DNA from: Catellatospora sp. TT07R-123 | GTDB taxonomy: Bacteria; Actinomycetota; Actinomycetes; Mycobacteriales; Micromonosporaceae | Assembly (NCBI RefSeq): GCF_018327705.1 | Contig: NZ_BNEM01000001.1 | Span: 248,001-312,000 of the forward strand | Reading direction: 5' to 3' | DNA length: 64,000 nucleotides | Shown: piece after piece, positions 1,260-55,823 of the stretch | Position numbering within the stretch: the first letter of the stretch is position 1 | Layout of the letters: each line of letters starts with the position of its first letter | Translations under genes and position numbers: made by a program | The notes under the pieces: model-generated | Told to the model about the DNA's origin: nothing | Databases searched by the model: none | The model's input: only the letters and a program-made list of their open reading frames with translations

Positions 1260-1270
1260 AGCGATGTTTG

Positions 1271-1447: not shown

Positions 1448-1469
1448 GATGTGCATGGTGGACGCGAGC
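1448..1469 (-). other. 3' strand of the pre-23S processing stem
   Basis: Just downstream of the 23S 3' end, 1448-1469 is complementary to 4637-4658 just upstream of its 5' end (21 of 22 positions). The two would pair in the primary transcript to close off 23S, the standard arrangement cut by RNase III. Confidence 0.75.
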
Positions 1470-1507
1470 GTTTCTTTGCGCAGCTTCTGACGTAAAGATA
1501 GTTAGGT

Positions 1508-6479
<4,972 letters not shown>

Positions 6480-6595
6480 AAAGAATTCAAAAACCCGGCA
6501 AAAAACAACCACCGACATAAAAAATGTCCGAATGTTTGCTTAATACCAAAGGAATGACCACGACGAGGTGATCAATAAATTGGCACTGGCATATC

Positions 6596-24724: not shown

Positions 24725-25606
24725 TCACAGCAGCTGGCGGGCGGTCGCCTGCTCGGCGAAGCCCAGCACCTCCAGCAGCACCGCGGCGTCGGCCGGGCGC
24801 AGCCGGCCCGCGGCGATGGCGCGGTCGGCGGTGCGGTGCGCCAGGGCCACGTACGCGGCCAGCGTCGGCGTGCCCGCCAGCGCCCGCAGGTGGCGGGCGA
24901 TCGTGCCCGCGTCGCCGCGCGACACCGGTCCGGTCAGCGCACCGTCGCCCATGGACAGCGCGTTGGCCAGCCCGGCCGTCAGCAGCGGCCGCAGCACCAG
25001 CCCGGGGTCGCGCAGCCCCGCCTCGCGCAGCCGGTCGGCGGCCTCGTTCACGAGCGTGACCAGGTGGTTGGCGCCGTGCGCGAGCGCGGCGTGGTAGAGG
25101 GCGCGGGCCTCGTCGGCGATCCACTCGGCGGTGCCGCCGAGGTCGGCCACCAGCCGGGCCGCGACCTCGCGGACCCCGTCGGGGGCGGTGACCCCGTAGG
25201 AGATCCCCGGCAGCCGGCCGAGGTCGGCCGGGGTGCCGGTGAACGTCATCGCCGGGTGCAGCGCCACGGGACGGCAGCCGACCGCCGCGGCGGGAGCGAG
25301 CACGCCCAGCCCGTGGGCGCCGGAGGTGTGCGCGACGACCTGGCCGGGGCGCAGGACGCCCATCTTGGCCAGTCCGGACACGACACCGGCCAGGGCGTCG
25401 TCGGGCACGGCCACCACCAGCAGGTCCGTCGCGGCGGTGGCGACCTCGTCGGTGGGCAGGTGCCGGGTGCCGGGCAGCATGGTGTGGATGCGATGGCGGG
25501 CCTGGTCGGAGGCGCCGGAGGCGGCCCCGACGTCGTATCCGGCCGCGGCCAGGGCGGCCCCGAGCACGGCGCCGACACGGCCGGCGGCGATCACCCCTGT
25601 TCTCAA
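24725..25606 (-). CDS. Rossmann-like DUF2520 protein, candidate ketopantoate reductase
   Basis: A 293-residue protein with an N-terminal NAD(P)-binding Rossmann fold (G-V-I-A-A-G-R-V-G-A-V-L-G) and a C-terminal helical DUF2520 domain (A-L-Y-H-A-A-L-A-H-G-A-N-H, then a Leu-rich helix bundle). In many actinobacteria a DUF2520 gene sits beside panC/panD in the housekeeping pantothenate operon and is thought to reduce ketopantoate to pantoate. The same role here would follow PanB, encoded three genes upstream. I chose TTG 25606: GAGGAG lies 6 bases upstream and the codon overlaps the preceding stop (TTGA). GTG 25594 is the alternative. It is the last gene of the cluster. The reaction is inference from context. 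Confidence 0.75.
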   Translation of the reverse strand: MRTGVIAAGRVGAVLGAALAAAGYDVGAASGASDQARHRIHTMLPGTRHLPTDEVATAATDLLVVAVPDDALAGVVSGLAKMGVLRPGQVVAHTSGAHGLGVLAPAAAVGCRPVALHPAMTFTGTPADLGRLPGISYGVTAPDGVREVAARLVADLGGTAEWIADEARALYHAALAHGANHLVTLVNEAADRLREAGLRDPGLVLRPLLTAGLANALSMGDGALTGPVSRGDAGTIARHLRALAGTPTLAAYVALAHRTADRAIAAGRLRPADAAVLLEVLGFAEQATARQLL

Positions 25607-26400
25607 CGTCTGCTCCTCATCGGTAGTGCGGCATCCACCGGCACCCGGTGCCAGGTGCCGGTGGCCGGGGCGGCGGTGAAGTCGTAGCGGACGGTGCCGT
25701 CGCCGATCGCCAGCAGCGACACCGACTGGGAGCGGAAGACCCGCCGCTCGCGGTCGGTCCGGCGGATGAGCAGGGCGCGGGGGTCCGCCGGGGCCAGGCC
25801 GCCGCCCTCGACGACGGGCAGCCACCCGGCCCAGGCCTCGGCGGTGGTGCCGTCGTCGGGGTCCGGTCGCGGCGCGGCCAGCAGCAGCGGCCGGAAGTGG
25901 GCGACGCGGGCGGCCATGTCGGCGGGTGAGGTCGGGTTGCCGGGATGCTGGTCGTCGCGGCCTTCGAGACCGCTGTTGACGATCAGGTGCAATCCCGCGC
26001 CCAGCCGCCGGGTGCGCAGGGCGGCGCCGTCCCAGGAGCTGAGCACGACGGTGTCGGTGTCGGCGGTGACCAGGTGGAACGGGTCGTAGCAGGGCAGCCG
26101 GGCACGGTCGAGGCCCTCCCCCGCCGCGACTGCCAGCGGCAGCTCCCCGCGCGAGCGCCGGGCCGCGCCGGGGCAGCCGCGGCCGAAGCCGTTGAGCAGG
26201 CACGCGACCCGGCCGTCGGCAGCCTGGACGGCGAGCCAGGTGCCGCCGGCCGCGCGGTCGCGGCCGGCGACGATCCCGGGCCGGTCGGGCCAGTGGGCGC
26301 CGGGCAGGTCCCAGGCGCGCCCGGCCAGCTCGTCGCGTACGGCGGCGAGCAGGACCGGCACCCGCGCCCCGGGATCAACGCTGATGATCGCGGTGCACAT
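25603..26400 (-). CDS. NRDE (TANGO2-like) family protein 1
   Basis: A 265-residue protein starting MCTAIISVDP, with the family hallmarks: Cys at position 2, a V-A-G-R-D-R-A-A-G-G-T-W-L-A-V block near residues 43-58, and an L-L-N-G-F-G stretch after it. NRDE/TANGO2 proteins have an Ntn-hydrolase-like fold in which Cys2 would become the N-terminal nucleophile; their reaction is not settled, but human TANGO2 has been linked to acyl-CoA/CoA metabolism. Its 5' end overlaps the ATP-grasp gene by 26 bases and its stop overlaps the DUF2520 start, so it is firmly part of the cluster. A second, divergent NRDE protein is encoded at 38724-39773. Confidence 0.8.
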   Translation of the reverse strand: MCTAIISVDPGARVPVLLAAVRDELAGRAWDLPGAHWPDRPGIVAGRDRAAGGTWLAVQAADGRVACLLNGFGRGCPGAARRSRGELPLAVAAGEGLDRARLPCYDPFHLVTADTDTVVLSSWDGAALRTRRLGAGLHLIVNSGLEGRDDQHPGNPTSPADMAARVAHFRPLLLAAPRPDPDDGTTAEAWAGWLPVVEGGGLAPADPRALLIRRTDRERRVFRSQSVSLLAIGDGTVRYDFTAAPATGTWHRVPVDAALPMRSRR

Positions 26401-27604
26401 CGGTCCCGTCCGGGTGCTCGTAGGTGAAGGTCAGCGCGTCGCAGGCCCGTGCGATGACGGCGAGCATCTCGGCGTGGTCGGCGGCGACGCCGAAGATCGC
26501 GTCGACGAGTTCGGTCATGACGCCGCCGACGAGCTCCGCGGGCGGCCGTAGAAACAGGTTGTAGGCGGCCACGCCGGGCACGGCGCGGGCCTGGCGGGCG
26601 CCGTCGACGCGCAGCAGCCGGGTCGCGCCGAGCGGGGGGATGTTGTGGTACTGGAAGACCACCCGCCCGGCCACGTCGAGCGGCTCCGGCCGCACGTCCT
26701 CGCCGAGCGCGAGCCGGGCTGCCAGGGTGACGAGGTTGACGCCGCAGCCGCGTACGGCGAGGGCGTTGATCTGGCCGCCCACACGGCCGTTGACCTCGAT
26801 GACGCGCGGTCCGTCGGCGGTCAGCTTGATCTCGGTATGGGTGATGCCCGTGGTGACGCCCAGCGCCCCCAGCGCGGCCGTGGCCAGGTCGCGGACCTGC
26901 TGGTCCTCGTCGGCGGCCAGCGGCGCGGGCCAGAAGTGCCCGCTCTCGCGAAACGGCGGCTGGAGCGGGTACTTGCCGGTGACCGCGAGGTGGGTGACCG
27001 TGCCGCCGCTGACGGCGCTCTCGACCGAGACGAAGTCGCCGAAGGGCAGGCTGGGACGGCCCCGCAGGTACTCCTCGACGACGGCCTCCCCGGTCCACGG
27101 CAGTGCCGCGAGCTGCTCGGGGCTCTCGACGAGGTAGGTGTGGCGGCTGCCCTCGCCCCGGCGGGGCTTGACGACGACGGGCAGCCCGACGGCGTGCGCG
27201 TGCGCGGCGAGCTCGGCCGGGTCGCGGGCGAGCAGGCTGGCGGTGGCCTGCACGCCCGCCTCGGCCAGCCGGCGGCGCTGGGCGTGCTTGTCGCGCAGCA
27301 GGGTGACCGTGGCGAGGTCGTGGTAGGGCAGTCCGAGGGCGGCGGCCAGGTCGGCGGTGTCGGCGACGAGGCTCTCGGCGTAGGTGACGATGCCGTCGGG
27401 GCGCCACCGCTTGAGCGCGGCGAGCAGGTTCTCGCGGGGCTGGGCCAGGGGCTCGATCCGCGTGGACCCGGCCAGCAGCGGCTCGTACTCGGCGGCGTGA
27501 TCGGAGTCGCCGAGCACGACGAGGACCTCGTACCCGGCCAGGCCGACGAGCAGTTCGCCGGGGGTGACCGCGCCGCGGTCGAACAGCACGACGATGCGGG
27601 ACAC
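26375..27604 (-). CDS. ATP-grasp ligase
   Basis: A 409-residue ATP-grasp enzyme. N-terminal Rossmann-like domain to about residue 100, then the ATP-binding part with V-V-V-K-P-R-R-G-E-G-S and V-V-E-E-Y-L-R-G, and the Mg-binding E-V-N-G-R-V-G-G near residue 290. It resembles amino-acid or carboxylate-amine ligases that join a carboxylate to an amine through an acyl-phosphate. Next to panB, panD and a likely ketopantoate reductase, but with no panC in the window, it is a candidate for joining pantoate (or an analogue) to beta-alanine or another amine. That is inference. GTG 27604 is chosen for its AGGAG site 7 bases upstream. It starts 10 bases after panB. Confidence 0.82.
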   Translation of the reverse strand: MSRIVVLFDRGAVTPGELLVGLAGYEVLVVLGDSDHAAEYEPLLAGSTRIEPLAQPRENLLAALKRWRPDGIVTYAESLVADTADLAAALGLPYHDLATVTLLRDKHAQRRRLAEAGVQATASLLARDPAELAAHAHAVGLPVVVKPRRGEGSRHTYLVESPEQLAALPWTGEAVVEEYLRGRPSLPFGDFVSVESAVSGGTVTHLAVTGKYPLQPPFRESGHFWPAPLAADEDQQVRDLATAALGALGVTTGITHTEIKLTADGPRVIEVNGRVGGQINALAVRGCGVNLVTLAARLALGEDVRPEPLDVAGRVVFQYHNIPPLGATRLLRVDGARQARAVPGVAAYNLFLRPPAELVGGVMTELVDAIFGVAADHAEMLAVIARACDALTFTYEHPDGTDVHRDHQR

Positions 27605-27614
27605 GATGCGGCTC

Positions 27615-28448
<834 letters not shown>

Positions 28449-28449
28449 G

Positions 28450-29694
28450 TCAGCTCCTCGCGGGTGCGGGTTCGAGCACGGATTCGGGGACGGCCAGCCG
28501 CTGCTGCGACCAGGCCGACAGGGGGACGGTGGCCAGCCCGGCCACGGCGAACAGCGCGCCGATGCCGAGCCAGGCGGGCAGGCCCAGGCCGAGCAGCGGC
28601 ATGGCGAACAGGACGGGCCCGAGCGCCTGCATGAACTGGACCGCGAGGCTCCACGCGCCGAGGTACTCGCCCTGGGCGTGCTCGGGCGCCAGGGCGTAGG
28701 ACAGGCCCCAGTTGGCGGCCGAGCAGTAGATCTCGCCGAGGGTGATCAGCAGCATCCCGGCGAACAGCAGGATCGCGGTGGGCAGCGCGGGCCGCCCGGA
28801 CGACAGGCCCCACAGCAGGCAGCCGCCGAGCAGCGCGAACCCGGCGCGGCGGCTGAGCTGCGCCGATCCACCGACGGTGTCGGCGCCGCGGCTCAGCCGG
28901 ACCTGCAGCACGATGACCAGCACCGTGTTGCTGATCATGAGGGCGGCCAGCAGTGACGGCGGGGCGCTGGTGCGTTGCAGCACCCACAGCGGCAGGCCGA
29001 CGTTGAGCAGCTGGGTGTGCATGTAGACCGCCCCGGCCACCAGCGCCATCGCCATGAACGGGGCGTTGCGCAGCGCGGCCCGGGGTGCGGCCTGCCCGGC
29101 CGCGACGGGGACCCGGGCGGCGGGCAGGCGCAGCAGCACCAGGGTCGACACGGCGTACGCGGCCGCGCAGGCCACGGCCAGCAGCGCGTACAGGCGGGGG
29201 TCGCGCAGGGCCAGGACGACCCCCGCCCCGGCGGAGCCGAGCGCGAACCCGATGTTGAAGACGGTCCGGTTGTACGCGTTGGCGCGGACCCGGTCCTCCT
29301 TGGACGAGATCGCCGACAGGTACGCCCGCCGGTTCGGCGACTCGCTGCAATCGGCCAGCGCGATCACCGTCACCAGCGCGAAGAAGCTCCAGAACGAGCC
29401 GGCCAGCAGGTACCCGGCGAAGCCCGCGGCACGGACCAGGTTGAGCACGATCAGGACCCGCTGGTGGCCGAACCGGTCGCCGAGCACGCCCGCCGGGACG
29501 GAGGCGACCAGCCCGGCCAGGCCGGCGGCGGTGAGACCCGCGCCGACCTGGCCCGCGGACAGGCCCACGTAGTTGATGAAGAACGCGGCACTGCCGGTGA
29601 CGAACGCGCCGGTGCCGATCGCGGCGACCAGGCTGATCACCGAGTAGCCCCGCAGCGGCCCCGGCGGCGGCAGCAGCTTGCGCAGCCAGGTCAC
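28450..29694 (-). CDS. MFS transporter
   Basis: A 414-residue major facilitator with about 12 hydrophobic segments. The loop after the second segment carries the MFS signature in [11 protein letters not shown]. It resembles drug-efflux type MFS proteins and is the only transporter in the cluster, so it probably exports the product (or protects the producer). GTG 29694 is the start: it overlaps the preceding PCP-thioesterase stop (GTGA), an arrangement for coupled translation. A longer frame upstream lies inside the neighbouring gene. Confidence 0.88.
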
Positions 29695-30749
29695 CGGGCA
29701 CCGTCGGAGGTCTTGCCCAGCGCCTCCCAGAACCCGGCGTCCTTGACGATGTCCCAGGTGTCGGCGTGCGGGTAGACGTGCTCGACCAGGTCGGCGGCCA
29801 GCGGCGCCCAGGAGAGGCGGGGGTCGGCGGCGTACTCGGCCTGCTGGAAGACCCGGGTCGGGCCGGTGTAGGGGCGGGCCTCGTAGTGGATCTGCGCGAA
29901 GGCCAGCGACGCCCACACCAGGTGCAGCCAGTTCCAGTCCTCGACCTTGGCGTCCTGGTCGTACCAGTCCCACGACGTCAGCTCCGGCATGATCGTGGGC
30001 GCGGCCGCGGACAGGTCCTCGACGCCGTACCGCTTGCTCAGCCAGGCCAGCCGGAACCGGTAGAAGTCGGCCAGGCCCCAGCCGAAGTCGAACCCGTGCG
30101 GGGCCGTCGCCGGGGCGCAGTTGATCAGAGCCAGGTCGGCGACGGTCTCACCCTGCGCGGTCAGCCGCTGGGCGATCTCGTAGGCGACCAGGCCGCCGGA
30201 GCACAGGCCGCCCAGGTGGTAGGGGCCGTGCGGCTGGATCGCGCGGATCTCGGCCAGGTGCCGTTCGGCACGGTCGCCGATGGTCAGCAGCGGGCGCTCG
30301 CGGCGGGCCAGCATGCCGGAGCGGATGCCGTACAGCGGGCGGCGGTAGCCGAACTGCTCGGCGAACCGGCCCAGGAACTCGATGTTGCCGCTGCCCCAGT
30401 GCACGCAGAAGAACGGCGCGCCCTCGCCCTCGGTGAGCGGCAGGACGGTCTGGGCCGGCGGCTGCTGCCACGGGCTGACCGTGTTCTTCCACAGGTCGTC
30501 GAAGGTCTCGTCGGCGGTGGCGGCCGCGGTCGCCGTGCCGGCCAGGGCCGCGGCGATGCCGGTGAAGGTCTGGTGCTCGAAGACGATGCTGGCGGCCAGG
30601 TCGATGCCGGCCTTGCGGGCCTCGCTGACCAGCTTGACGACCAGCAGCGAGTATCCGCCGACGTCGAAGAAGTTGTCCTCGGGCTCGACGTCGTAGTCGA
30701 GCAGGTCGGCGGCGATCTGGGCGAGTCTGGCGGCGATCGGGTCGGTCAT
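29691..30749 (-). CDS. PCP-thioesterase didomain protein
   Basis: A 352-residue NRPS fragment. Residues 1-75 are a peptidyl carrier domain; D-V-G-G-Y-S-L-L places the phosphopantetheine Ser at 34. Residues about 100-352 form an alpha/beta-hydrolase thioesterase. In the nucleophile elbow (G-G-L-C-S-G-G, residues 180-186) Cys183 occupies the position normally held by Ser. Cys thioesterases of this kind are known from beta-lactone and beta-lactam forming NRPSs, but also occur elsewhere. The didomain lacks adenylation and condensation domains; the stand-alone adenylating enzyme at 33354-34880 is the likely partner. The start overlaps the coaX stop by one base (TGATG). Confidence 0.88.
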   Translation of the reverse strand: MTDPIAARLAQIAADLLDYDVEPEDNFFDVGGYSLLVVKLVSEARKAGIDLAASIVFEHQTFTGIAAALAGTATAAATADETFDDLWKNTVSPWQQPPAQTVLPLTEGEGAPFFCVHWGSGNIEFLGRFAEQFGYRRPLYGIRSGMLARRERPLLTIGDRAERHLAEIRAIQPHGPYHLGGLCSGGLVAYEIAQRLTAQGETVADLALINCAPATAPHGFDFGWGLADFYRFRLAWLSKRYGVEDLSAAAPTIMPELTSWDWYDQDAKVEDWNWLHLVWASLAFAQIHYEARPYTGPTRVFQQAEYAADPRLSWAPLAADLVEHVYPHADTWDIVKDAGFWEALGKTSDGAR

Positions 30750-31522
30750 CACTGTCCTACCAGGGCGGAGTGGGCGAACGCGGTCTGCAGTCCGATGAGG
30801 GTCAGGTGCGGTTCGTGGTGGGTGACGGTCTTGCACTCGGCGGTGACCAGGGGCGCGAGCCCGCCGGTGGCGACGACGGCCTGCACGCTGCCGCCGAGCT
30901 CGTCGAGGATGCGCGAGACGATCCCGTCGACCTGCCCGGCGAAGCCGTAGACCAGGCCGGACTGCAGGCAGTGCATGGTGTTCTTGCCGATGACGGTGGC
31001 GGGGCGGCGGGCCTCGACCTTGCGCAGCTGCGCGGCGTACGTGGCCAGCGCGTCCATGGAGATCTGGATGCCGGGGGCGAGCACCCCGCCCAGGAACGCG
31101 CCGTCGTCGCCGACCACGTCGAAGTTGGTCGAGGTGCCGAAGTCGACCACGATCGCGGCGCCGCCGTAGAGGCGGTGGGCGGCCAGGGCGTTGGCGACGC
31201 GGTCGGCGCCGACCTCGTGCGGGTGGTCCACGCGCAGGGCCAGCCCGCCGGTGACCCCCGACTCGATGACCAGCGCCGGCAGGTCGCCGTGGTAGCGGGC
31301 GAGCATGGTGCGCAGCTCGCGCTTGACGTCGGGCACGGTCGAGCAGGCGGCCACGCCGCTGATGTCCGCCAGTCGCGGGCCGAGCAGCCCGGCCAGCTTC
31401 AGGTGCAGCTCGTCGGCGGTGGTGCGCCGGTCGGTGCCGATGCGCCAGGTGTGGTGCACCCGGTCGCCGTCGAAGAGCGCCAGCACCGTGTTGGTGTTGC
31501 CGATGTCAACGGTGAGCAGCAT
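30749..31522 (-). CDS. coaX: Type III pantothenate kinase
   Basis: A 257-residue CoaX, normal length. It phosphorylates pantothenate to 4'-phosphopantothenate. The nucleotide-binding D-I-G-N-T-N-T at residues 6-12, the H-E-V-G-A-D-R-V-A-N-A substrate/catalytic block near 105 and the V-D-F-G-T-S-T-N-F-D-V-V phosphate loop near 125 are all present. Type III kinases are not inhibited by CoA and do not use many pantothenamide antimetabolites, which matters if this operon deals with pantothenate analogues. It starts 2 bases after panD ends and overlaps the next gene by one base. Confidence 0.94.
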   Translation of the reverse strand: MLLTVDIGNTNTVLALFDGDRVHHTWRIGTDRRTTADELHLKLAGLLGPRLADISGVAACSTVPDVKRELRTMLARYHGDLPALVIESGVTGGLALRVDHPHEVGADRVANALAAHRLYGGAAIVVDFGTSTNFDVVGDDGAFLGGVLAPGIQISMDALATYAAQLRKVEARRPATVIGKNTMHCLQSGLVYGFAGQVDGIVSRILDELGGSVQAVVATGGLAPLVTAECKTVTHHEPHLTLIGLQTAFAHSALVGQ

Positions 31523-31524
31523 GG

Positions 31525-31929
31525 TCAGCGGCCCGCCGACAGGACGACGCCGGGCGCGGCGTGGCTGGGGTCGGCGTCGACGTGCACGATCCGGTTGTCG
31601 GTGTTCACGTGGACGACCCTCGGTTCGAAGACCTTCGCCTCGGCGTCGGCGAGGATCGCGTACGCGATGATGATGACCATGTCGCCGGGGTGCACCAGGT
31701 GCGCGGCGGCCCCGTTGATGCCGATGACGCCCGAACCGCGCTCGCCCTCGATGACGTAGGTCTCCAGGCGGGCGCCGTTGGTGATGTCGACGATGGCGAC
31801 CTGCTCGCCGGGCAGCAGGTCGGCGGCGTCCATGAGGTCGGCGTCGATGGTGACCGAGCCGACGTAGTGCAGGTCCGCCTGGGTGACGACGGCACGGTGG
31901 ATCTTGGACTTGAACATGGTGCGCAGCAT
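31525..31929 (-). CDS. panD: Aspartate 1-decarboxylase
   Basis: A 134-residue pyruvoyl enzyme that decarboxylates aspartate to beta-alanine. It begins [20 protein letters not shown], with the self-cleavage site G-S in H-Y-V-G-S-V-T-I-D (the Ser becomes the pyruvoyl group), and the Arg and Tyr of N-G-A-R-L-E-T-Y that bind substrate and help processing. Length is normal. It lies 30 bases after the aminotransferase gene and 2 bases before coaX. It would supply beta-alanine for a pantothenate-type amide. Confidence 0.96.
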
Positions 31930-31959
31930 GGATGTCTCTCCTGGATCAGTGCGGTGTGG

Positions 31960-33327: not shown

Positions 33328-33353
33328 TGGTTGGCCTTTCGCCGTGGTTGCGG

Positions 33354-34880
33354 TCAGGAGCGGCGGCGCACGATCGCGGCCGCGCAGAGGTCGTCCAGCG
33401 CGGAGCGGTCGAGCTTGCCGGAGGGGGTCAGCGGGAGGGCCCCGATCGCGGCGAAGCGGTCGGGGACCATGTATCCGGGCAGCCGGGTGCGGGCGTGGTC
33501 GCGCAGCTCGTCGAGGGTGACCTCGCCCGCAGGCACGTAGCAGGCGACCAGCTGCTGCACGCCGTGGCGGTTGACGACCACGCCCGTGCCCGCGTCGCGT
33601 ACGCCGGGGTGGGCGCGCAGCACGGCCTCGACCTCGGCCAGCTCGATGCGGTATCCGCGCAGCTTCACCTGGGCGTCGCAGCGCCCCTGGTAGTCCAGCT
33701 CCCCGTCGGGCAGGCGGCGGGCCAGGTCGCCGGCGCGGTACCAGCGCAGGCCGTCGCGCTCGGTGAACCGCTGCGCGGTGAGGTCGGGCCGGTTGAGGTA
33801 GCCCAGCGCGACGCCGGTGCCGCCCACCCAGATCTCGCCGGTCTGCCCGTCGGGCACCGGGATGCCGTCCTCGTCGAGCAGGTCGATGCGCAGGTGCGGC
33901 AGCGGGCGCCCGATCGGCGAGCGGGCCGGTCCGGCCAGGTCGGCGGCGGTGAGCACCTTGATCGTGGCGTGCACGGTGATCTCGGTGATGCCGTACATGT
34001 TGATCATCACGGGTGGGGTGTCGGGGACCGCGGCGACGAAGTCGGCCACCACGTCGAGGTCGACGCTCTCGCCGCCGAAGACGACGTGGCGCACCGGCAG
34101 CGGCGGCGTGCCCGCCTCGCGGTAGTGCTCGGCCAGGTAGCGGAAGACCGAGGGCACCTGGTTGAGCACGGTGACCTCCTGCTTGCACAGGAAGACCAGG
34201 AAGTCCGCGGGCGACTGCGCCACCGCGCGCGGCACCATCACCACGGTCCCGCCGGTGGCCAGCGCCCCCCACATCTCCCACACCGAGAAGTCGAAGTTGT
34301 ACGAGTGGAACAGGCTCCACACGTCGCCCGGCCCGACGTCGAACAGCGGCAGGGTGTGCCGCAGCAGTTCCAGCACGTTGCCGTGGCTGACCAGGCAGCC
34401 CTTCGGGGTGCCGGTGGACCCGGAGGTGTAGATGACGTACGCCGCCTCGGCCGGGGCGGCCGCGGGCGCGGTGCCCGGCGGGACCCGCGCGGGGTCGACC
34501 AGCTGCACGCCGTCCAGCGCGAACCCCCCGGCCAGCGCCGGATCGCCGACCAGGGTGCCGATCCCGGCGTCGGCCAGCATGAACGCCAGCCGCTGCGCCG
34601 GGTAGGCCGGGTCCAGCGGCACGTACACGGCACCGGCGCGCAGCACGCCCAGGATCGCCGCGACGACGTCGACGGTACGGTCCAGCAGCAGCCCGACCCG
34701 CTCGCCTGGCCGCACCCCGCGGGCGGCCAGATGGGCGGCGAGCGCGTCGGCGCGGGCGGCCAGCCCGGCGTAGGTCAGCGTGGTGGACTCGTCGCGGCAG
34801 GCGACGGCGTCGGGCCACCGGCGGGCGGCCTCGTCGAACAGCCGCGTCAGCGACTGCGCTGCGGCAAGGGGTGTGCTCAT
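33354..34880 (-). CDS. Stand-alone NRPS adenylation domain, threonine-type code
   Basis: A 508-residue amino-acid adenylating enzyme without carrier or condensation domains. A3 (Y-T-S-G-S-T-G-T-P-K-G), A5 (N-M-Y-G-I-T-E), A7 (Y-R-A-G-D-L), A8 (L-R-G-Y-R-I-E-L-A-E) and A10 (P-L-T-P-S-G-K-L-D-R) are intact. Aligning by eye to GrsA, the specificity residues read D-F-W-N-V-G-M-V-H plus the A10 Lys, essentially the established threonine code. It would activate L-threonine and load the carrier at 29691-30749 or one elsewhere. Its ATG overlaps the stop of the FAD gene (ATGA). No MbtH-like gene is seen. Confidence 0.9.
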   Translation of the reverse strand: MSTPLAAAQSLTRLFDEAARRWPDAVACRDESTTLTYAGLAARADALAAHLAARGVRPGERVGLLLDRTVDVVAAILGVLRAGAVYVPLDPAYPAQRLAFMLADAGIGTLVGDPALAGGFALDGVQLVDPARVPPGTAPAAAPAEAAYVIYTSGSTGTPKGCLVSHGNVLELLRHTLPLFDVGPGDVWSLFHSYNFDFSVWEMWGALATGGTVVMVPRAVAQSPADFLVFLCKQEVTVLNQVPSVFRYLAEHYREAGTPPLPVRHVVFGGESVDLDVVADFVAAVPDTPPVMINMYGITEITVHATIKVLTAADLAGPARSPIGRPLPHLRIDLLDEDGIPVPDGQTGEIWVGGTGVALGYLNRPDLTAQRFTERDGLRWYRAGDLARRLPDGELDYQGRCDAQVKLRGYRIELAEVEAVLRAHPGVRDAGTGVVVNRHGVQQLVACYVPAGEVTLDELRDHARTRLPGYMVPDRFAAIGALPLTPSGKLDRSALDDLCAAAIVRRRS

Positions 34881-36502
34881 CTCGTCTCTCCTGTCGTGGG
34901 CGCGACCCGCAGGTCGGCCGTCCATGCGCGGACCAGCGCCGTGGCCCGCTTCACGCAGCTGCTGACGGCGCTGGCGCCGATGTGGGAGCCCATGGTGAGC
35001 TGCCCGAGGACCCCGACCCGGCCGTAGGTGCCCCCGTCGTCGGTCAGCGCCAGCGACGTCTCCGGGTCGACGCCGATCCCGGCCACCGGGTCGGCGACCA
35101 GCACCCCGGCGGCCAGCGCGGCCCGCGCGAAGCCGGTGCCCTCGCCCAGCCCGGTCTCCCGCCCGATGGCGTTGACCAGGTATGCGGTGTGCAGCGGTGC
35201 ACCGTCGGCGAAGGTGACGGCGAACCCGCGCTCCTGCGGCCGCACCCCGGTCGCGCCGGAGCGCACCCGCAGCACCCCGGCGTCGAGCAGGGCCTCGATC
35301 CGGGCGGCGTTCTCGATCGGGATCGCCGCGGAGTCCACCAGGTACGGCGTCATGAACTCGCGCCACACGGCGCGCCGCTCGGCAGCCGGCAGCTGCTTGT
35401 AGATCCACCACAGCGTGCCGAAGAAGACCCGGGCGAGCTCCTGCCCGGTGGCCGTCGCCGGGTCGCGGTGGCGCCAGGCGTCGATGGAGCGTCGCAGGGC
35501 CAGGTGCTCGCGACCGGTGACGTCGCCGTCCTCGCCGTCGGCCGCGGCGGGCCCCGGGCTCGGCCGCAGCCACCGGCGGGCCGCCTCGTAGCGGCGGGCG
35601 ACGGCGTCGGCGGTGAATCGCCCGGCCCCCTCCCCCAGCTCCGCCAGCGGTTCGGTCACCAGGTACGGGTTGTCCTCACACGAGCGGGCCGCGGCGCGGT
35701 CGACCTGGACCGCGGGCAGCAGGCCGCGCCGCGAGCAGGCGGTGATCGTGAACGGTTCGCGCGGGTGGTACCGGTACCGGCCCGGTTCGATCCGCTCGAA
35801 CTCGCCGAACCGGGCGGCGATGGTCAGCGCCGCGTCGACGGCGGTCAGCGACGTTCCCAGCAGCCCGATGGCACCGGGCTGCACGGACGCGGCCAGCCGC
35901 GCGGCGGGCCAGGGGAACAGCAGCGCGCCGCTGCCGTCGGCCGCGAGGCGCTCGCCCAGGTCACGGCAGTGGTCGGTGCTGGACGGATGCCAGTGGCCGG
36001 TGGCCGTCACCAGGCGGTCGGCCCACAGGATCGAGCCGGAGGCCAGGCTCACCCGCAGCGTCCCGGCCGCCTCGGCCACGACACCCGTCGCGGTGTCGGA
36101 CAGCAGGTGGACCGAGGCGCCGAGCATCCGGGCGCGGCCGGTGTACTCGGCCAGCCGCTGCCGGGCGTACACGCCGAAGCGGTGGCGGGAGGCGAGCATG
36201 TCCTCGGGCGCCCGCGGGTAGGTCTCGGGGACCGGGCCCTGGCCGGCGAGCCAGCCGGTGAAGTCGGCGGGCTCGTCGGCGATCAGCGACATCGTCGCGG
36301 CGCGCATGTTCAGCAGGTGCAGCGGGTCGGTGCCGGCTCCGTACGGCAGGCCGGGGCCGAAGTCGCCGCTGCGTTCCACGATGCTGACCACGGTGCGGGC
36401 GGCCACCCCCGCGGGCAGCCGCTCCAGTTCCCGGACCAGGGCGATGAACGCGGCCGTGCCGCTGGCGCCCGCGCCGACGATGACGTAGTGGTCGCTGGTC
36501 AT
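34877..36502 (-). CDS. FAD/NAD(P)-binding oxidoreductase
   Basis: A 541-residue flavoprotein. The N-terminus has the dinucleotide fold G-A-G-A-S-G (10-15) followed by G-P-G-L-P-Y-G; a second motif D-R-L-V-T-A-T-G-H-W-H-P lies mid-protein, and G-L-L-G-T-S-L-T-A-V-D marks a second Rossmann segment. This is the 'FAD-NAD(P)-binding' family related to N-hydroxylating and Baeyer-Villiger-type flavin monooxygenases. It may oxidise a cluster intermediate, possibly an amine such as diaminobutyrate. That is inference. It overlaps both neighbours by 4 bases. Confidence 0.82.
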   Translation of the reverse strand: MTSDHYVIVGAGASGTAAFIALVRELERLPAGVAARTVVSIVERSGDFGPGLPYGAGTDPLHLLNMRAATMSLIADEPADFTGWLAGQGPVPETYPRAPEDMLASRHRFGVYARQRLAEYTGRARMLGASVHLLSDTATGVVAEAAGTLRVSLASGSILWADRLVTATGHWHPSSTDHCRDLGERLAADGSGALLFPWPAARLAASVQPGAIGLLGTSLTAVDAALTIAARFGEFERIEPGRYRYHPREPFTITACSRRGLLPAVQVDRAAARSCEDNPYLVTEPLAELGEGAGRFTADAVARRYEAARRWLRPSPGPAAADGEDGDVTGREHLALRRSIDAWRHRDPATATGQELARVFFGTLWWIYKQLPAAERRAVWREFMTPYLVDSAAIPIENAARIEALLDAGVLRVRSGATGVRPQERGFAVTFADGAPLHTAYLVNAIGRETGLGEGTGFARAALAAGVLVADPVAGIGVDPETSLALTDDGGTYGRVGVLGQLTMGSHIGASAVSSCVKRATALVRAWTADLRVAPTTGETR

Positions 36503-38727
36503 CGCTCGCCCCGGGCACGTTCGGCCGCCTCGGCGCAGCGGGCCGTCTCCGGGGACGGGTTCGCGGCGAGCACGTCGGCGGCGAGCCCCGGCAGTTGCGG
36601 GCAGGCCGCGCCGCTGACGACGTACGCCCGGGACGCCGGGGCGGCGGGGTGGGTGCCGGCGGGCAGCGCGGCCCGGGTGACCTGGTCCAGCAGTGTGGGC
36701 AGTGCGGTGGCGTGCCGCCGCAGCGGGTGCGCCGCGACGGCCGCGGTGACCCGCTCGGTGAACCGGCCCGGTCCGTCTGCGGCGAGCTGCTGGAGCAGGC
36801 GGGCGCCGGCGCTGGCGGCACCGGCCCGCTCCGGGCGCAGCCCGGTGTCCAGGGCGATGAGCAGCTGGGCGAGGTCGGCGGCCGCCAGGGTCACCGGGTG
36901 CAGGTCGACGGCGGCACCGGCCAGCAGGGGCAGCGCGCCGGGGGCCATCTGCGGCTGGGCCAGGCCGTTGATGGCCCTGGGCCAGTCGACCTCGACCGCG
37001 TGCCCGGCGTCGCGGGCGGCCAGGCCCGCGGGCAGGCAGGGCGCGGCGGCGTCGTACACGGCGCTGAGCGAGCGCACGGCGGTGGCGGCGCCGTGGCCGT
37101 GCAGCGCGGTGCAGGCGGCGAACGTGGCTCCGCCGGAGGTGGGTATCCGCAGCTCGTCGACTGACGGGCCGGGCAGGCCGAGTTCGGTCCAGTGGTGGCG
37201 CAGCCGCTCGCACACGTCCAGCAGCAGGGTGGCGAACCCGGCCGCGCCGTCCATCCCCGACAGCCCGAACTGGGCGTTGAGCTGCTCGTCGGGGTCGCAG
37301 GCGAGGAACACAGCGCGCAGCCCGCGCCCGGCCAGTTCCCGCTCGCGCCGGTGGGCGGCGGCGGTGGCGTCGTTGAAGTCGGCGCAGCGGATGACGGGTC
37401 CGGCGGCCACCAGCGTGGCCAGCTTGCCGTCCGGTATGTCGCGCGAGACGAAGAACTCGCAGGTGACCTGGGCGTTGTGCTTGGTGGCGAGCAGCTCGGC
37501 CAGGGCGGCGACGGCGCGGGCGTGGCTCCCGGTGGACGCCGCCAGCAGCGTCACCCCGTCGAACAGCTCCCGCAGGTCGCCGACCGGGCGGCCGGTGCGT
37601 GCCGTGTGCGCCTCCGCCGCGGCCTGCACCAGACCGGCGACGACGCGAGCCTTGCTGGAGCCGCCCAGCGGCAGGGCCGCGTCGACGACCAGCAGCGACG
37701 GTTCGCCGAACACGGTGCCCAGCAGCCCGGCGGGCACGATCGGGGGCCGGTTGACGTCGAGCATGGTGTCCATCAGGGCGCGTACCCGCGGGGCGCGCAG
37801 CGCGAGGTCGGCGGCGGCGTCCCGGGTCGGGCGCCACCGGGCCCGCTCCTGGCGGCGCTCGACGAGTGCCGCGCGCAGGCGGGCGGCGGTGCCGTAGCGG
37901 GTGCGCAGCGCGGCGACGGCCGCTCCGGCCAGCCCGAACAGTTCCCAGCGCCGTCCGTCGGGATCGGTGACGGTGACCGTGGGCGAGTCGAACCAGCCGA
38001 CATAGCGCGGGGTGCGGCCGGGGCCCAGGCCCACCCGCAGGTGCGGCCGGACGGCCAGGGGCGCGGCGAAGACGTCGTCGAGGGCGAGCCGGCCGATCGC
38101 GGCGACCTCCTGGGCCTGCGGGCGCATCCCGTCGGCGGCGCCGTCGGCGACGGCCACCACGTGCGCGGACGCGCGGTGCCCGCTCTCGGTCGTCCAGCGG
38201 GTCAGCACCGGCCAGGCGTCGAAACGGGTGTCGGTCAGGTCCGCCGCCCGCGGCAGACCGGCCTCCTCGCCGAACTCCCGCAGCGCCGCGGCGGTCGTGG
38301 TCTCGCCCGGCTCGACGCCGCCGCCGAACAGGACCACCTCACCGGCGTGCAGCATCGGCCCGCCGGTGTGACCGTTGACGGTGGTGCGGGCGCTGACCAG
38401 CAGCGTGTCGCCGACGATCGGCAGGGCGACCGCGGCCGTCCGCGGCTGCGGGTGGTGCCCGGCCAGGAACCGGTCGCGGTCGGCCAGGCTGACGTGCGCG
38501 GCGTACGGCACGTCGTCGGTGCCCCCGAGGGCCGCGACCAGCGCGCGGGTCCACGCGTAGGCCGCCTCGTCGCGGACCTGGCCGTCATGGCTTCGCAGCT
38601 CCCGTGCGGCCAGGGTGAGCAGCTCCGGCGCGCGGTCCCCGCCCGCGGCGACCGCGGCGGCCAGCGCCGGGTGCAGCGGGCGGTTGCGCAGCGCGTCGAG
38701 GATCTGCGCCGGCGATGGCTGGTTCAT
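36499..38727 (-). CDS. Nudix hydrolase-PLP (fold type II) fusion protein
   Basis: A 742-residue protein of unusual architecture. Residues 1-90 are helical and unrecognised. Residues about 95-250 form a Nudix domain with a complete box (G136 through Leu158, matching GX5EX7REUXEEXGU). Residues about 320-640 look like a fold type II PLP enzyme (tryptophan-synthase-beta family): S-S-K-A-R with the PLP lysine at 358, A-S-T-G-S-H-A-R-A near 397, and a P-T-S-G-G-A-T-F phosphate-like loop. Fold type II enzymes run beta-replacement or elimination on Ser, Thr or Cys; Nudix enzymes cut nucleoside diphosphate linkages such as in CoA or ADP-ribose. I know no standard family with this fusion. Overlaps both neighbours (ATGA). 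Confidence 0.78.
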   Translation of the reverse strand: MNQPSPAQILDALRNRPLHPALAAAVAAGGDRAPELLTLAARELRSHDGQVRDEAAYAWTRALVAALGGTDDVPYAAHVSLADRDRFLAGHHPQPRTAAVALPIVGDTLLVSARTTVNGHTGGPMLHAGEVVLFGGGVEPGETTTAAALREFGEEAGLPRAADLTDTRFDAWPVLTRWTTESGHRASAHVVAVADGAADGMRPQAQEVAAIGRLALDDVFAAPLAVRPHLRVGLGPGRTPRYVGWFDSPTVTVTDPDGRRWELFGLAGAAVAALRTRYGTAARLRAALVERRQERARWRPTRDAAADLALRAPRVRALMDTMLDVNRPPIVPAGLLGTVFGEPSLLVVDAALPLGGSSKARVVAGLVQAAAEAHTARTGRPVGDLRELFDGVTLLAASTGSHARAVAALAELLATKHNAQVTCEFFVSRDIPDGKLATLVAAGPVIRCADFNDATAAAHRRERELAGRGLRAVFLACDPDEQLNAQFGLSGMDGAAGFATLLLDVCERLRHHWTELGLPGPSVDELRIPTSGGATFAACTALHGHGAATAVRSLSAVYDAAAPCLPAGLAARDAGHAVEVDWPRAINGLAQPQMAPGALPLLAGAAVDLHPVTLAAADLAQLLIALDTGLRPERAGAASAGARLLQQLAADGPGRFTERVTAAVAAHPLRRHATALPTLLDQVTRAALPAGTHPAAPASRAYVVSGAACPQLPGLAADVLAANPSPETARCAEAAERARGER

Positions 38728-39773
38728 CGCGCGGCCAGCTCCGTGACCAGTGTGTAGTCGGCGGAGCTGGCCGGGAAGGCCGCTGCCGAGATCGTCTGCG
38801 GCCACGGCTGACCGGGCGTGACGTGGCGCTCCTCGTACAGGAAGGTGCGCAGGCCGTCCTGGCCGATGACGACGCAGGTGGTGCTCTTGGTCCATTCGAC
38901 CTCGCCCGCGTCCGCCTGCGACGGCCACGGGGCGCGCTGGTGGCGGGTCTGGCCGAGGGTGTTGAGGTACGGCGGTTGCAGCGCGGTGCTGCGGTGGGCG
39001 CGCCAGGACGGGTCGCGGTAGTCGTCGTCGCTGATGCGCCCGTCGATGGCGAACGCGCTCAGCCAGCCGTCCCAGCTGGCCGGGTCGGTGTCGGGGCGCG
39101 GCTGCTCCGCCAGCCGGTCGAGCAGGATCTGGCTGAGGGCGGCGGCCGGGGTGTCGAGCCCCCGGACGGTCAGCACGTGCGTGCCGCAGTCGGTGATCGG
39201 GGTGACCTCGACCCGGCCGTCCTCGTGCAGGCGCACGACGTACGCGTCGGAGGCGTCGGCCAGGAGCAGGAACAGCGGCAGCATGAGCTTGCGGTCGCGG
39301 TCGAGCGCGGCGGGCAGGTCGGTCTGGAGCCCCTTCGCGGCCGCGGCGGCGCTGGGGTAGCTGACCGCGTCCAGGCACAGCCCGCTGCGGGTGACGTAGC
39401 CGAGCGAGGCGCGCCGGGCCCGCAGCTCGTCGGAGGCGCTCTCGCCCAGCTCGCCGGAGGCCATGGGCGCGATGAGGATGCGGGCGTACACGCCGGTGCG
39501 CTGGTTGACGGCCATCCAGGTGCCGCCGCCGGCGTCGAGGCCACCGATGATCGGCTCGGCGAGCAGGTCCCGGTCGTGTCCGATGCGGAACGTCCACACG
39601 CGGTCGAGCAGCTGCGGGTTGTCCCGCCAGTGGCAGGCGTACGACGCGGTGTCGATGCCGAAGCCGGCGGCGGCCGGACGGCCGTGGGGCAGGTGGATGG
39701 ACTGGTCGCGGGTCTCGTAGACGACGAGCGCGGCGTCGCGCTGCGGGCAGAAGGAGAACACGGCGAGGCACAC
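38724..39773 (-). CDS. NRDE (TANGO2-like) family protein 2
   Basis: A 349-residue protein starting MCLAVFSFCPQRDAALVV. Cys2, the I-I-G-G-L-D-A-G-G-G-T-W-M-A-V-N block near residue 75-90 and the following G-V-Y-A-R-I strand match the NRDE/TANGO2 family. The C-terminal 120 residues extend beyond the usual family length and are unrecognised. Cys2 is placed to be an N-terminal nucleophile as in Ntn hydrolases. The GTG start is 82 bases after the CoaB-like gene, the largest gap in the cluster, and a secondary promoter could lie there (sequence is more AT-rich). It shares only weak similarity with NRDE protein 1, so the two are probably not a recent duplication. Confidence 0.72.
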   Translation of the reverse strand: MCLAVFSFCPQRDAALVVYETRDQSIHLPHGRPAAAGFGIDTASYACHWRDNPQLLDRVWTFRIGHDRDLLAEPIIGGLDAGGGTWMAVNQRTGVYARILIAPMASGELGESASDELRARRASLGYVTRSGLCLDAVSYPSAAAAAKGLQTDLPAALDRDRKLMLPLFLLLADASDAYVVRLHEDGRVEVTPITDCGTHVLTVRGLDTPAAALSQILLDRLAEQPRPDTDPASWDGWLSAFAIDGRISDDDYRDPSWRAHRSTALQPPYLNTLGQTRHQRAPWPSQADAGEVEWTKSTTCVVIGQDGLRTFLYEERHVTPGQPWPQTISAAAFPASSADYTLVTELAAR

Positions 39774-39855
39774 GGCAGATCAACCCCGTAATCGATTGGT
39801 GGGAGCGAAGTGGACGGTAGGTGAATTACTCAAGATGGGGCAAGAGTGGCAAACT

Positions 39856-40896
39856 TCACAAAGTCGCATCTACATGAAGGAAAGCTTCAACTTCGTCGAG
39901 GATGCGGTGGGCGACGGCGCTCTTGGGCAGGACGTCTGTCTCGACCCGGACACCGGTGCCGTCGAGGATCCACACCTTGTTGGTGTCCACCTCGAAACCG
40001 ACGCCGGGACGTGACACGTCGTTGAGGCACAGCAGGTCGAAGCCGCGCTGGCGCATCTTGGCCGCGGCCCGGTCGAGGTCGCTGTCCGTCTCGGCGGCGA
40101 ACCCCACCCGCAGCACGCCCGCGGGCACCTCGGGCACGAAGTTGGCGACCGTCTCCAGCGCCAGGGACATCCCGGACGGGCCTTTTTTGATCTTGCCGCT
40201 GGCGACCGCCGCGGGCCGGAAGTCCGACACCGCCGCCGCCATCACCAGCACGTGCGCCGAGCCGGTCGCCTCCAGCACGGCCGCACGCAGCTGCGCCACC
40301 GACGGGGCCAGCACGACCCGGACTCCGGCCGGGGCCGGGACCTGAGCCGACGTGGCGATGTAGGTGACCTCGGCACCCCGGTCACGGGCCGCCGACGCCA
40401 GCGCGAAACCCATCTTCCCGGAGGAGCGGTTGGTGATGAACCGCACCGGGTCCATCGGTTCACGGGTGCCGCCCGAGGTCACCACGATCCGCCGCCCGGC
40501 CAGGCCGCCGACGCGGCGACCGTACGCGGCGACCACGGCGTCCAGGACCGCCTCGACGAAGGGCAGGCCGTCCTCGGCCGGCTCCAGCCGCGCCGAGCCG
40601 CCGTCGAGCCGCAGCGCCAGCCGCTGCCCGGGCCCGGTCTCCGGTACGGCGACCAGGACGCCGGGGACCTCGGGACCCCCACCGGCCAGGTGCACCGCGG
40701 GCGCGTCGACCGGGCGGCCGTCCGGGGTGCGGCAGCCCGCCAGCACCCAGGCGCTCTCGGCGATCAGTCCGCGAGCCTGCGGTCCGATGTGGACATGCAC
40801 TTCGCAGCCCTGGCCGGACAGCCCTCGCGCCAATTCGAGTCCAAGGTGAACAGTTGATGCACTGTCCATTAACAACAGGATCCGACCAGGCAACAT
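39856..40896 (-). CDS. CoaB-like phosphopantothenate-cysteine ligase, vestigial CoaC domain
   Basis: A 346-residue relative of CoaBC. Residues about 130-346 are a CoaB domain: I-V-V-T-S-G-G-T-R-E-P-M-D-P-V-R-F, N-R-S-S-G-K-M-G, A-A-A-V-S-D-F-R-P and the K-I-K-K loop, all needed for the CTP-dependent ligation of phosphopantothenate with cysteine. The N-terminal 128 residues look like a shrunken CoaC flavodoxin: the catalytic H-I-x-L-A stretch and the P-A-M-N motif are missing, so decarboxylation is unlikely. Housekeeping CoaBC is about 400 residues. It is the first gene of the 14-gene operon and has TTA at codon 9; both ends of the gene use less GC-biased codons than the middle. Confidence 0.85.
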   Translation of the reverse strand: MLPGRILLLMDSASTVHLGLELARGLSGQGCEVHVHIGPQARGLIAESAWVLAGCRTPDGRPVDAPAVHLAGGGPEVPGVLVAVPETGPGQRLALRLDGGSARLEPAEDGLPFVEAVLDAVVAAYGRRVGGLAGRRIVVTSGGTREPMDPVRFITNRSSGKMGFALASAARDRGAEVTYIATSAQVPAPAGVRVVLAPSVAQLRAAVLEATGSAHVLVMAAAVSDFRPAAVASGKIKKGPSGMSLALETVANFVPEVPAGVLRVGFAAETDSDLDRAAAKMRQRGFDLLCLNDVSRPGVGFEVDTNKVWILDGTGVRVETDVLPKSAVAHRILDEVEAFLHVDATL

Positions 40897-41121
40897 GTCC
40901 GCGATGATGCCAGCGCCAGCAACCGCTTGTGTGCCCTTTTCCGGGCGGCCCGAGGCCGCCGAGCGGTCGGCTCATTCCACCGCGCCGCAGGCCAGGGCAT
41001 ACGACACCAGGCTCTGAACCCGCAGAATCGAACAGGTGTCGTAAACCCGGCTCATGGCATGCCCCACAATGCGACAACCGATCGGCTCTGTCGCATCTGC
41101 ACAGTCCAGACTGGACATACG
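40897..41121 (-). promoter_or_regulatory. Upstream region of the 14-gene cluster with two inverted repeats
   Basis: No gene is seen here. Two inverted repeats stand out: TACGACACC/GGTGTCGTA (41000-41008 with 41035-41043) and ATGCGACA/TGTCGCAT (41059-41066 with 41079-41086, 12-base gap). The second looks like a binding site for a dimeric regulator. I could not fix a confident -35/-10 pair; TCGTAT within the first repeat could be a -10. Confidence 0.4.
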
Positions 41122-41155
41122 CCGCCGCGGCCGCCGTTGCGGGCGGCCGCGGCGG
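41122..41155 (-). terminator. Terminator after the Fn3 glycosidase gene
   Basis: A perfect 14-bp GC stem (41122-41135 with 41142-41155) with a 6-base loop begins 6 bases past the stop of the minus-strand gene. It also isolates the cluster downstream from that gene's transcription. Confidence 0.7.
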
Positions 41156-41161
41156 TGCCGG

Positions 41162-53586: not shown

Positions 53587-55823
<2,237 letters not shown>

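What the first reader, a model, noticed from the sequence alone, without database searches (positions are those of the whole stretch)
24725..40896. Candidate new biosynthetic cluster built from CoA-pathway genes and NRPS parts
Fourteen minus-strand genes, most overlapping or within 30 bases, mix panB, panD, coaX and a CoaB-like ligase with a threonine-type adenylation enzyme, a PCP-thioesterase, a diaminobutyrate-type aminotransferase, a Nudix-PLP fusion, an FAD enzyme, an ATP-grasp ligase, two NRDE proteins, a DUF2520 reductase and an exporter. Two readings fit: the pan/coa enzymes build a pantothenate-like scaffold for the product, or they are self-resistance copies protecting against a CoA-pathway inhibitor made by the rest. 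I recognise no described cluster of this composition. The gene calls are direct; the pathway is inference.
Basis: partly seen in the sequence, partly recalled or inferred. Interest (0 to 1): 0.92.

Follow-up and report, generated by a model that had tools for sequence, protein, structure and literature searches.

The report
Orphan cluster with duplicated CoA-pathway genes
This bacterium carries a rare 14-gene operon that joins its own spare copies of vitamin B5 / coenzyme A enzymes to small peptide-making enzymes, so it may make an unknown natural product built from, or aimed at, the coenzyme A pathway.

Summary
Fourteen minus-strand genes (24725-40896) form one tight operon: 12 of 13 junctions overlap or are at most 30 bases. 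DUF2520 is probably a ketopantoate reductase, so the set is fuller than described; PanC and the CoaC decarboxylase are missing. PanD and DUF2520 stay close to family housekeeping copies (about 6 points of identity lost); CoaX and CoaB diverged far (20 and 28 points) but keep most near-invariant residues. That fits unchanged early steps and a changed substrate later. The A domain reads as threonine-type; the thioesterase nucleophile is Cys, as in the beta-lactone and beta-lactam formers ObiF and SulM. No sister cluster appeared in the genomes sampled. Best reading: a specialised-metabolite operon building a phosphopantothenate-derived product (0.48). Self-resistance by pathway duplication remains open (0.22). 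The product and all substrates are inferred.

The parts
39856..40896 (-). CoaB-like ligase, first gene; CoaC half reduced to a remnant without the PAM motif; TTA codon at codon 9
   Evidence: PF04127 196.6 bits; 41.5% identical to own CoaBC over 253 residues; CoaB motifs kept; N-terminal part and TTA
38724..39773 (-). NRDE-a, distant TANGO2/NRDE-like protein starting Met-Cys
   Evidence: TANGO2 17.9 bits, below cut-off; 24% to NRDE-b
36499..38727 (-). NUDIX-PALP fusion, 742 aa, complete Nudix box, divergent PLP domain
   Evidence: Pfam; Nudix box; full length seen only in the own genome
34877..36502 (-). FAD enzyme of PF13454
   Evidence: 101.1 bits; own genome only among 394 class genomes at E 1e-20
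33354..34880 (-). Stand-alone adenylation enzyme; specificity residues read DFWNVGMVH, threonine-type (recalled code table)
   Evidence: TIGR01733; CytC1, 5n9w, ObiF1 among solved matches; residues
31960..33327 (-). Diaminobutyrate-type class III aminotransferase
   Evidence: TIGR00709 471.5 bits; lysine-containing SKA block
31525..31929 (-). PanD copy with the Gly-Ser self-cleavage site
   Evidence: TIGR00223; 73.4% to own housekeeping PanD
30749..31522 (-). CoaX copy (type III pantothenate kinase family)
   Evidence: PF03309; 64.7% to own CoaX; 104 of 119 near-invariant columns kept
29691..30749 (-). PCP-thioesterase; PCP Ser34; thioesterase Cys183 in place of Ser; Asn210 at the position of the EntF Asp
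   Evidence: Pfam; alignment to EntF; positions
28450..29694 (-). MFS exporter-like protein
   Evidence: MFS_1 100.6 bits
27615..28448 (-). PanB copy
   Evidence: TIGR00222 293 bits; 69.4% to own housekeeping PanB
26375..27604 (-). ATP-grasp ligase resembling L-amino acid ligases
   Evidence: Pfam; 30vh and 3vot
25603..26400 (-). NRDE-b, TANGO2/NRDE protein starting Met-Cys, VRDE in place of NRDE
   Evidence: TANGO2 55.1 bits
24725..25606 (-). DUF2520 protein, likely PanG-type ketopantoate reductase; TTG start assumed
   Evidence: PF10727 and PF10728; 74.6% to own housekeeping copy beside panC; PMC4572677 passage
40897..41161 (-). 265-base upstream gap, probable control region; contains imperfect inverted repeats
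   Evidence: sequence; repeats; no sigma-70 match

Best explanation
The operon is a specialised-metabolite cluster that runs a private copy of the pantothenate / phosphopantothenate pathway and diverts it into a small product. Proposed steps: PanB and the DUF2520 reductase make pantoate and PanD makes beta-alanine. Housekeeping PanC, or the operon's ATP-grasp ligase, joins pantoate to beta-alanine or a variant amine. The diverged CoaX phosphorylates the result, and the diverged CoaB-like ligase activates its carboxylate and joins it to an amine, without CoaC decarboxylation by the same protein. A second branch loads threonine on the PCP with the stand-alone A enzyme; the FAD enzyme, the PLP enzymes and the aminotransferase shape it or its partner, and the Cys-type thioesterase releases it, possibly as a strained ring or by transfer to an amine. 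The NRDE proteins and ATP-grasp ligase trim or join the parts, and the MFS protein exports the product. Shown: the genes, the separate housekeeping set, retained motifs, the graded divergence and the Cys nucleophile motif. Inferred: every substrate, the order of steps and the product.
For: Tight single operon mixing pan/coa copies with A, PCP-TE, FAD, PLP, ligase and exporter genes. Complete separate housekeeping set. Several successive steps are copied (PanB, DUF2520, PanD, CoaX, CoaB), not one target. Median identity to family housekeeping genes, own housekeeping copy vs operon copy: PanD 82.0 vs 75.8, DUF2520 75.9 vs 69.5, CoaX 84.3 vs 64.3, CoaB domain 72.9 vs 44.8: the early steps stayed ordinary, the kinase and ligase changed, while CoaX keeps 104 of 119 and CoaB 53 of 66 near-invariant columns. 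CoaC is lost from the CoaB-like protein. TTA codon at codon 9 of the first gene.
Against: No product, substrate or activity is shown. PanC is missing from the operon. CoaX and CoaB keep fewer near-invariant columns (0.87 and 0.80) than any housekeeping row (minimum 0.92 and 0.94), so weakened or changed activity is possible, and M. tuberculosis CoaX, itself a conserved gene, seems inactive (PMC7770189 passage). The same divergence would also fit resistant versions of the enzymes. PanB could not be compared across the family. No sister cluster was found, so conservation of the gene set is untested.
Confidence: 0.48

Rival explanations
1. Self-resistance: the A, PCP-TE, FAD and PLP genes make a CoA-pathway inhibitor, and the extra PanB, DUF2520, PanD, CoaX and CoaB protect the producer by raising pantothenate and phosphopantothenate and by supplying insensitive kinase and ligase.
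For: The copied enzymes are distinct from, and additional to, the housekeeping set. CoaX and CoaB, the diverged ones, are the steps that pantothenate antimetabolites meet: CJ-15,801 is activated by a pantothenate kinase and then inhibits CoaB (PMC7770189 passages).
Against: Resistance usually needs one target, whereas five steps are copied; PanC is not; the CoaB copy lacks CoaC, so it cannot replace CoaBC by itself.
Confidence: 0.22
2. CoA consumption: the product takes cysteamine or phosphopantetheine from CoA, as thienamycin does; the Nudix domain and NRDE proteins break CoA down, and the pan/coa copies refill the pool.
For: Weak similarity of the Nudix part to CoA pyrophosphatases (E 5.2e-4; E 0.0033 to 1nqy); thienamycin precedent (ThnR, ThnH, ThnT; PMC6097109 passage).
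Against: The CoA pyrophosphatase equivalog cut-off is far from met (19.7 vs 134 bits). No CoaC, CoaD or CoaE gene was recognised in the operon. Pantetheine cleavage by NRDE proteins is only a guess.
Confidence: 0.13
3. Extra primary metabolism: the pan/coa copies only boost vitamin B5 / CoA supply and their neighbours are unrelated.
For: The PanD, PanB and DUF2520 copies are still 69-75% identical to the housekeeping proteins and align over nearly their whole length.
Against: One tight operon with A, PCP-TE, FAD, NUDIX-PALP and exporter genes; in the family samples only the own genome has a second CoaX (1 of 45) or CoaB (1 of 39); PanC and CoaC are missing.
Confidence: 0.05

Closest known systems
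mkp and acd clusters (alpha-methyl-KAPA, acidomycin) of the streptavidin gene nexus (PMC13336041, abstract and outline)
   Same: Actinobacterial clusters whose products mimic or block a cofactor pathway (biotin)
   Different: Biotin, not CoA; gene content not compared here; here five CoA-pathway steps are copied beside NRPS-type genes
Thienamycin cluster (PMC6097109 passage)
   Same: Specialised pathway that handles CoA pieces with dedicated hydrolases
   Different: Breaks CoA down; the passage names no pan/coa biosynthetic copies; CoA pyrophosphatase membership of the Nudix part here is not met
CJ-15,801 (PMC7770189 passages)
   Same: Natural pantothenate analogue that blocks the CoaB step after phosphorylation
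   Different: Fungal compound; nothing shows that this operon makes it
ObiF / SulM thioesterases (PMC6668435 and PMC11298585 passages)
   Same: Cys nucleophile in GxCxG; no Asp at the EntF position
   Different: There the thioesterase is part of a large NRPS with condensation domain; SulM Gln-Cys-Asn absent here; position-II Asp unverified
Dapdiamide / bacilysin-type pathways (recalled; the names came from NCBIfam and PDB hits)
   Same: ATP-grasp amino acid ligase in a small antibiotic pathway with an MFS exporter (recalled)
   Different: No pan/coa genes there (recalled); the dapdiamide A synthase and BacD cut-offs are not met here (33.3 vs 840; 38.9 vs 850)

Membership tests
PanB | TIGR00222 equivalog cut-off 207.55 bits | tested here: met
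   293 bits
PanD | TIGR00223 equivalog cut-off 106 bits and Gly-Ser cleavage site | tested here: met
   168.6 bits; VGSVT identical to own housekeeping PanD
CoaX | TIGR00671 cut-off 58.2 and PF03309 cut-off 24.7 | tested here: met
   231.1 bits and 225.7 bits; the closest equivalog model, NF009845, narrowly fails (344.3 vs 358)
CoaX | Pantothenate kinase activity | not testable with these tools
   104 of 119 near-invariant columns kept, below the minimum of housekeeping rows
CoaBC | TIGR00521 equivalog cut-off 219.7 with both CoaC and CoaB parts | tested here: not met
   178.7 bits, CoaB part only; no PAM motif in the first 140 residues
CoaB (ligase part) | PF04127 cut-off 22 and similarity to solved CoaB | tested here: met
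   196.6 bits; 4qji E 1e-40; 53 of 66 near-invariant columns kept
PanG-type ketopantoate reductase | Rossmann-like plus DUF2520 domains; reductase activity | tested here: inconclusive
   Domains met, 74.6% to the copy near panC; activity rests on PMC4572677 citing Francisella PanG
NRDE/TANGO2 | PF05742 cut-off 22.6, NRDE-b (25603-26400) | tested here: met
   55.1 bits, but VRDE in place of NRDE
NRDE/TANGO2 | PF05742 cut-off 22.6, NRDE-a (38724-39773) | tested here: not met
   17.9 bits
CoA pyrophosphatase (Nudix) | NF007980 equivalog cut-off 134 bits | tested here: not met
   19.7 bits; general Nudix box complete
ObiF/SulM-type strained-ring thioesterase | Cys nucleophile (GxCxG) | tested here: met
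   GLCSGG against EntF GYSLGG
ObiF/SulM-type strained-ring thioesterase | Catalytic Asp at position II | tested here: inconclusive
   Asn210 at position I; Asp309 is a candidate but lies 19 residues before the likely His, against 30 in ObiF and SulM
SulM-type beta-lactam thioesterase | Gln-Cys-Asn motif | tested here: not met
   Leu-Cys-Ser
CreE/HpyO-type flavin monooxygenase | PF13454 cut-off 21.8; the CreE/HpyO link of this Pfam is recalled | tested here: inconclusive
   101.1 bits; no solved relative at E 0.1
Specialised-metabolite gene cluster | Second copies of primary enzymes beside NRPS-type genes and an exporter, with separate housekeeping copies | tested here: met
   a product is not shown

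The most novel reading that the evidence does not exclude
A bacterial pathway that makes a pantothenate-type CoA antimetabolite by running a parallel PanB, ketopantoate reductase, PanD, CoaX, CoaB line and joining it to a threonine-derived warhead (for example a strained ring closed by the Cys thioesterase): a CoA counterpart of the biotin-mimic clusters, with CoaX and CoaB re-shaped both to build the product and to tolerate it.
Probability: 0.2. Interest if true: 0.92.

Novelty: new variant of a known kind. Interest (0 to 1): 0.72.

Why it matters
Clusters that mimic or block a cofactor pathway are in print for biotin; my paper searches showed none for pantothenate/CoA in bacteria, within an open-access library. 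If this operon makes a phosphopantothenate conjugate, it would give a natural CoA-pathway inhibitor or scaffold, a CoaB enzyme that may accept other amines, and a marker (extra coaX plus a CoaC-less coaB beside NRPS genes) for finding more. Even as self-resistance it would point to an unknown CoA-pathway inhibitor. The question can be tested directly with labelled precursors and single-gene deletions.

Tried and rejected
Housekeeping reading: rejected; a separate set lies elsewhere. Recent duplication in this genome: not supported; the operon copies are 41-75% identical to the own housekeeping proteins, while the same-genus genome's housekeeping copies are 92-98% for the four proteins compared. 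The CoaX placement near family genes has weak support; DUF2520 falls inside the family tree with moderate support; the origin of CoaB is undecided.

Search for a sister cluster led nowhere. NUDIX-PALP: own genome only in 397 order and 11 genus genomes; in 394 class genomes own plus three Nudix-only hits; none confirmed among 111 pattern matches in the 84,980-species collection; no match in 72,556 plasmid records. FAD enzyme: own only in 394 class genomes at E 1e-20; 97 plasmid records, all under 60% identity (22.6-30.3% in the 20 listed). NRDE-a: one 26% relative, an ordinary NRDE protein on a 4.9-kb contig. CoaB-like in family f31: 128 of 327 genomes match at E 1e-38, one match each; the other 199 have none at that cut, so their housekeeping copies fall below it too and weaker second copies are not excluded. 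CoaX in family f33: 323 of 326 genomes match at E 1e-70, one match each. Samples overlap; the large protein searches scored only 2-8 candidates per genome; the collection scans need exact 8-residue matches. Distant sisters could be missed.

B. subtilis YkpB is named PanG in PMC11487621, but that paper places it in the same orthologous group as PanE, so I do not use it as support for DUF2520.

No sigma-70 promoter match, and one terminator-like site against 2.2 expected. No Rfam element except the rRNA operon. No PADLOC match for four proteins. The Streptomyces plasmid relative of the FAD enzyme (H16) sits in an unrelated neighbourhood.
Full report
What is there. Fourteen minus-strand genes fill 24725-40896. 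In transcription order: CoaB-like, NRDE-a, NUDIX-PALP, FAD enzyme, A enzyme, diaminobutyrate-type aminotransferase, PanD, CoaX, PCP-thioesterase, MFS, PanB, ATP-grasp, NRDE-b, DUF2520. Twelve of 13 junctions overlap or are 30 bases or less; the one after the CoaB gene is 82. Upstream lie a 265-base gap, a fibronectin-III protein, an M23 peptidase and an AfsR-like NB-ARC/TPR protein; at the other end two plus-strand genes without Pfam matches. I do not count these as part of the operon.

Housekeeping set. The genome (9.17 Mb, two contigs) has a second PanB, one PanC and a second DFP/CoaB gene. Fetching those places and searching them with the operon proteins shows DUF2520 (74.6% identical to the operon copy), PanD (73.4%) and CoaX (64.7%) in the same 18-kb stretch as PanC, PanB (69.4%) elsewhere and CoaBC (41.5%) elsewhere. 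The operon therefore holds a second set, without PanC. The finding's own refutation test was run and does not refute.

DUF2520. PMC4572677 (passages) describes a DUF2520 oxidoreductase as the likely ketopantoate reductase of a Corynebacterium without panE, with homologues in Francisella, where the reaction has been shown (it cites the PanG paper, which I did not see). I take the operon's DUF2520 protein as such a reductase by family and by the position of its housekeeping counterpart near panC; its activity is not shown. PMC11487621 (passages) uses the name PanG for a B. subtilis protein of the PanE group, so it gives no support for DUF2520.

Divergence. Against family genomes, median identity of own housekeeping versus operon copy is: PanD 82.0 vs 75.8 (9 of 10 family loci; not found in one), DUF2520 75.9 vs 69.5 (10 of 10), CoaX 84.3 vs 64.3 (29 loci), CoaB domain 72.9 vs 44.8 (29 loci) (medians taken from the printed lists). 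The 29 loci are the best-scoring of 44 and of 39 matching genomes, so they favour the operon copy if anything. In the trees the operon CoaX sits on a branch of 1.8 and CoaB on 2.6-3.3 changes per column, against 0.27 for PanD and 0.34 for DUF2520; these lengths come from separate models and the place of the long rows is unsure. CoaX keeps 104 of 119 near-invariant columns (0.87) and CoaB 53 of 66 (0.80), below the minimum for housekeeping rows left out in turn (0.92 and 0.94). So both are changed more than any housekeeping copy, without loss of the catalytic blocks visible.

CoaB-like protein. It matches solved CoaB structures from residue 131, or from 95 in a full-length CoaBC chain. Its first 131 residues resemble the start of CoaC by eye, but lack the PAM motif and are shorter than in the own CoaBC (195 residues of open frame before the CoaB block, about 183 from the first Met). 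A ligase without its decarboxylase would leave a carboxylated amide, if an amino acid is the amine. The gene has a TTA codon at codon 9. TTA occurs in 1 of 14 operon genes and 2 of 27 flanking genes examined; TTA control of secondary metabolism through bldA is recalled.

NRPS parts. The A enzyme's specificity residues read DFWNVGMVH (by eye from motif blocks), which I recall as a threonine code. The top solved matches are multi-domain LgrA chains; the best stand-alone A enzyme is CytC1 (378 bits), then 5n9w (355), with ObiF1 at 340. The PCP has its serine. The thioesterase has GLCSGG where EntF has GYSLGG, and Asn where EntF has an Asp. PMC11298585 (passages) and PMC6668435 (passages) describe Cys nucleophiles and a moved Asp in SulM and ObiF, which close beta-lactam and beta-lactone rings. 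Here Asp309 is only a candidate (19 residues before the likely His, against 30), and SulM's Gln-Cys-Asn motif is absent. Strained-ring release is a possibility, not a result.

Other enzymes. NUDIX-PALP has a complete Nudix box; its Nudix part has weak similarity to CoA pyrophosphatases, far below the equivalog cut-off. The FAD enzyme is in PF13454, which I recall as the CreE/HpyO family. The ATP-grasp protein resembles L-amino acid ligases. Both NRDE proteins start Met-Cys; a catalytic Cys2 is inferred.

Distribution. In the samples searched, only the own genome has a full-length NUDIX-PALP (1 of 397 order, 1 of 11 genus, 1 of 394 class genomes), the FAD enzyme at E 1e-20 (1 of 394), a second CoaX in the family (1 of 45; G1334 also shows two matches, but they are the two parts of one gene), or a second CoaB in the family (1 of 39). 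In f33, 323 of 326 genomes have one CoaX match at E 1e-70 and none has two. In f31, 128 of 327 have one CoaB match at E 1e-38 and none has two, at a cut that most housekeeping copies there miss. The 84,980-species collection gave no NUDIX-PALP relative and one distant NRDE relative.

Literature. Ten paper searches were run; I saw listings, plus passages or abstracts of the seven papers named in this report. No listing showed a cluster with panB, panD, coaX and NRPS genes. The library is open-access only, so this is weak evidence of absence. PMC7770189 (passages) gives CJ-15,801 as a fungal pantothenate antimetabolite that blocks the CoaB step, and says M. tuberculosis CoaX seems inactive, so a conserved CoaX need not be an active kinase. 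PMC13336041 (abstract and outline) gives biotin-pathway clusters as the nearest logical precedent. PMC6097109 (passage) gives CoA breakdown in thienamycin.

Judgement. A specialised-metabolite operon with a private pantothenate/phosphopantothenate line is well supported as anatomy. That it builds the product's scaffold (0.48) is favoured over self-resistance (0.22) because several steps, not one target, are copied, and because the early steps stayed ordinary while CoaX and CoaB changed. The same change would also fit resistant enzymes, so the margin is modest. CoA consumption (0.13) rests on a weak Nudix similarity.

Noticed in passing
53625-55823 (+): One 732-aa open frame carries a MerR DNA-binding domain (1-62), a redoxin/AhpC domain (137-284) and a complete enolase (310-727): a MerR-redoxin-enolase fusion.
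   Followed up: no
59026-60504 (-): IS605 OrfB/TnpB-type protein with a Cas12f1-like TNB domain.
   Followed up: no
1270-6482 (-): rRNA operon (5S, 23S, 16S) at the window start.
   Followed up: no
20835-22343 (-): Trypsin-like protease with alpha-lytic-type prodomain and a ricin-B lectin domain.
   Followed up: no
45123-47579 (-): AfsR-like NB-ARC/TPR protein (818 aa) with only a weak N-terminal HTH_26 match (17.2 bits, cut-off 22), upstream of the operon on the same strand; possible regulator.
   Followed up: no
40995-41008 and 41035-41048; 41069-41076 and 41089-41096: Inverted repeats in the gap upstream of the operon (14 nt at 86% and 8 nt at 100%), possible operator or stem; chance level not tested.
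   Followed up: no
G1334:C1:6215318-6216063 (unnamed family genome): CoaX matches in two overlapping pieces (residues 1-142 and 141-250), which looks like a frameshift or a sequencing error.
   Followed up: no
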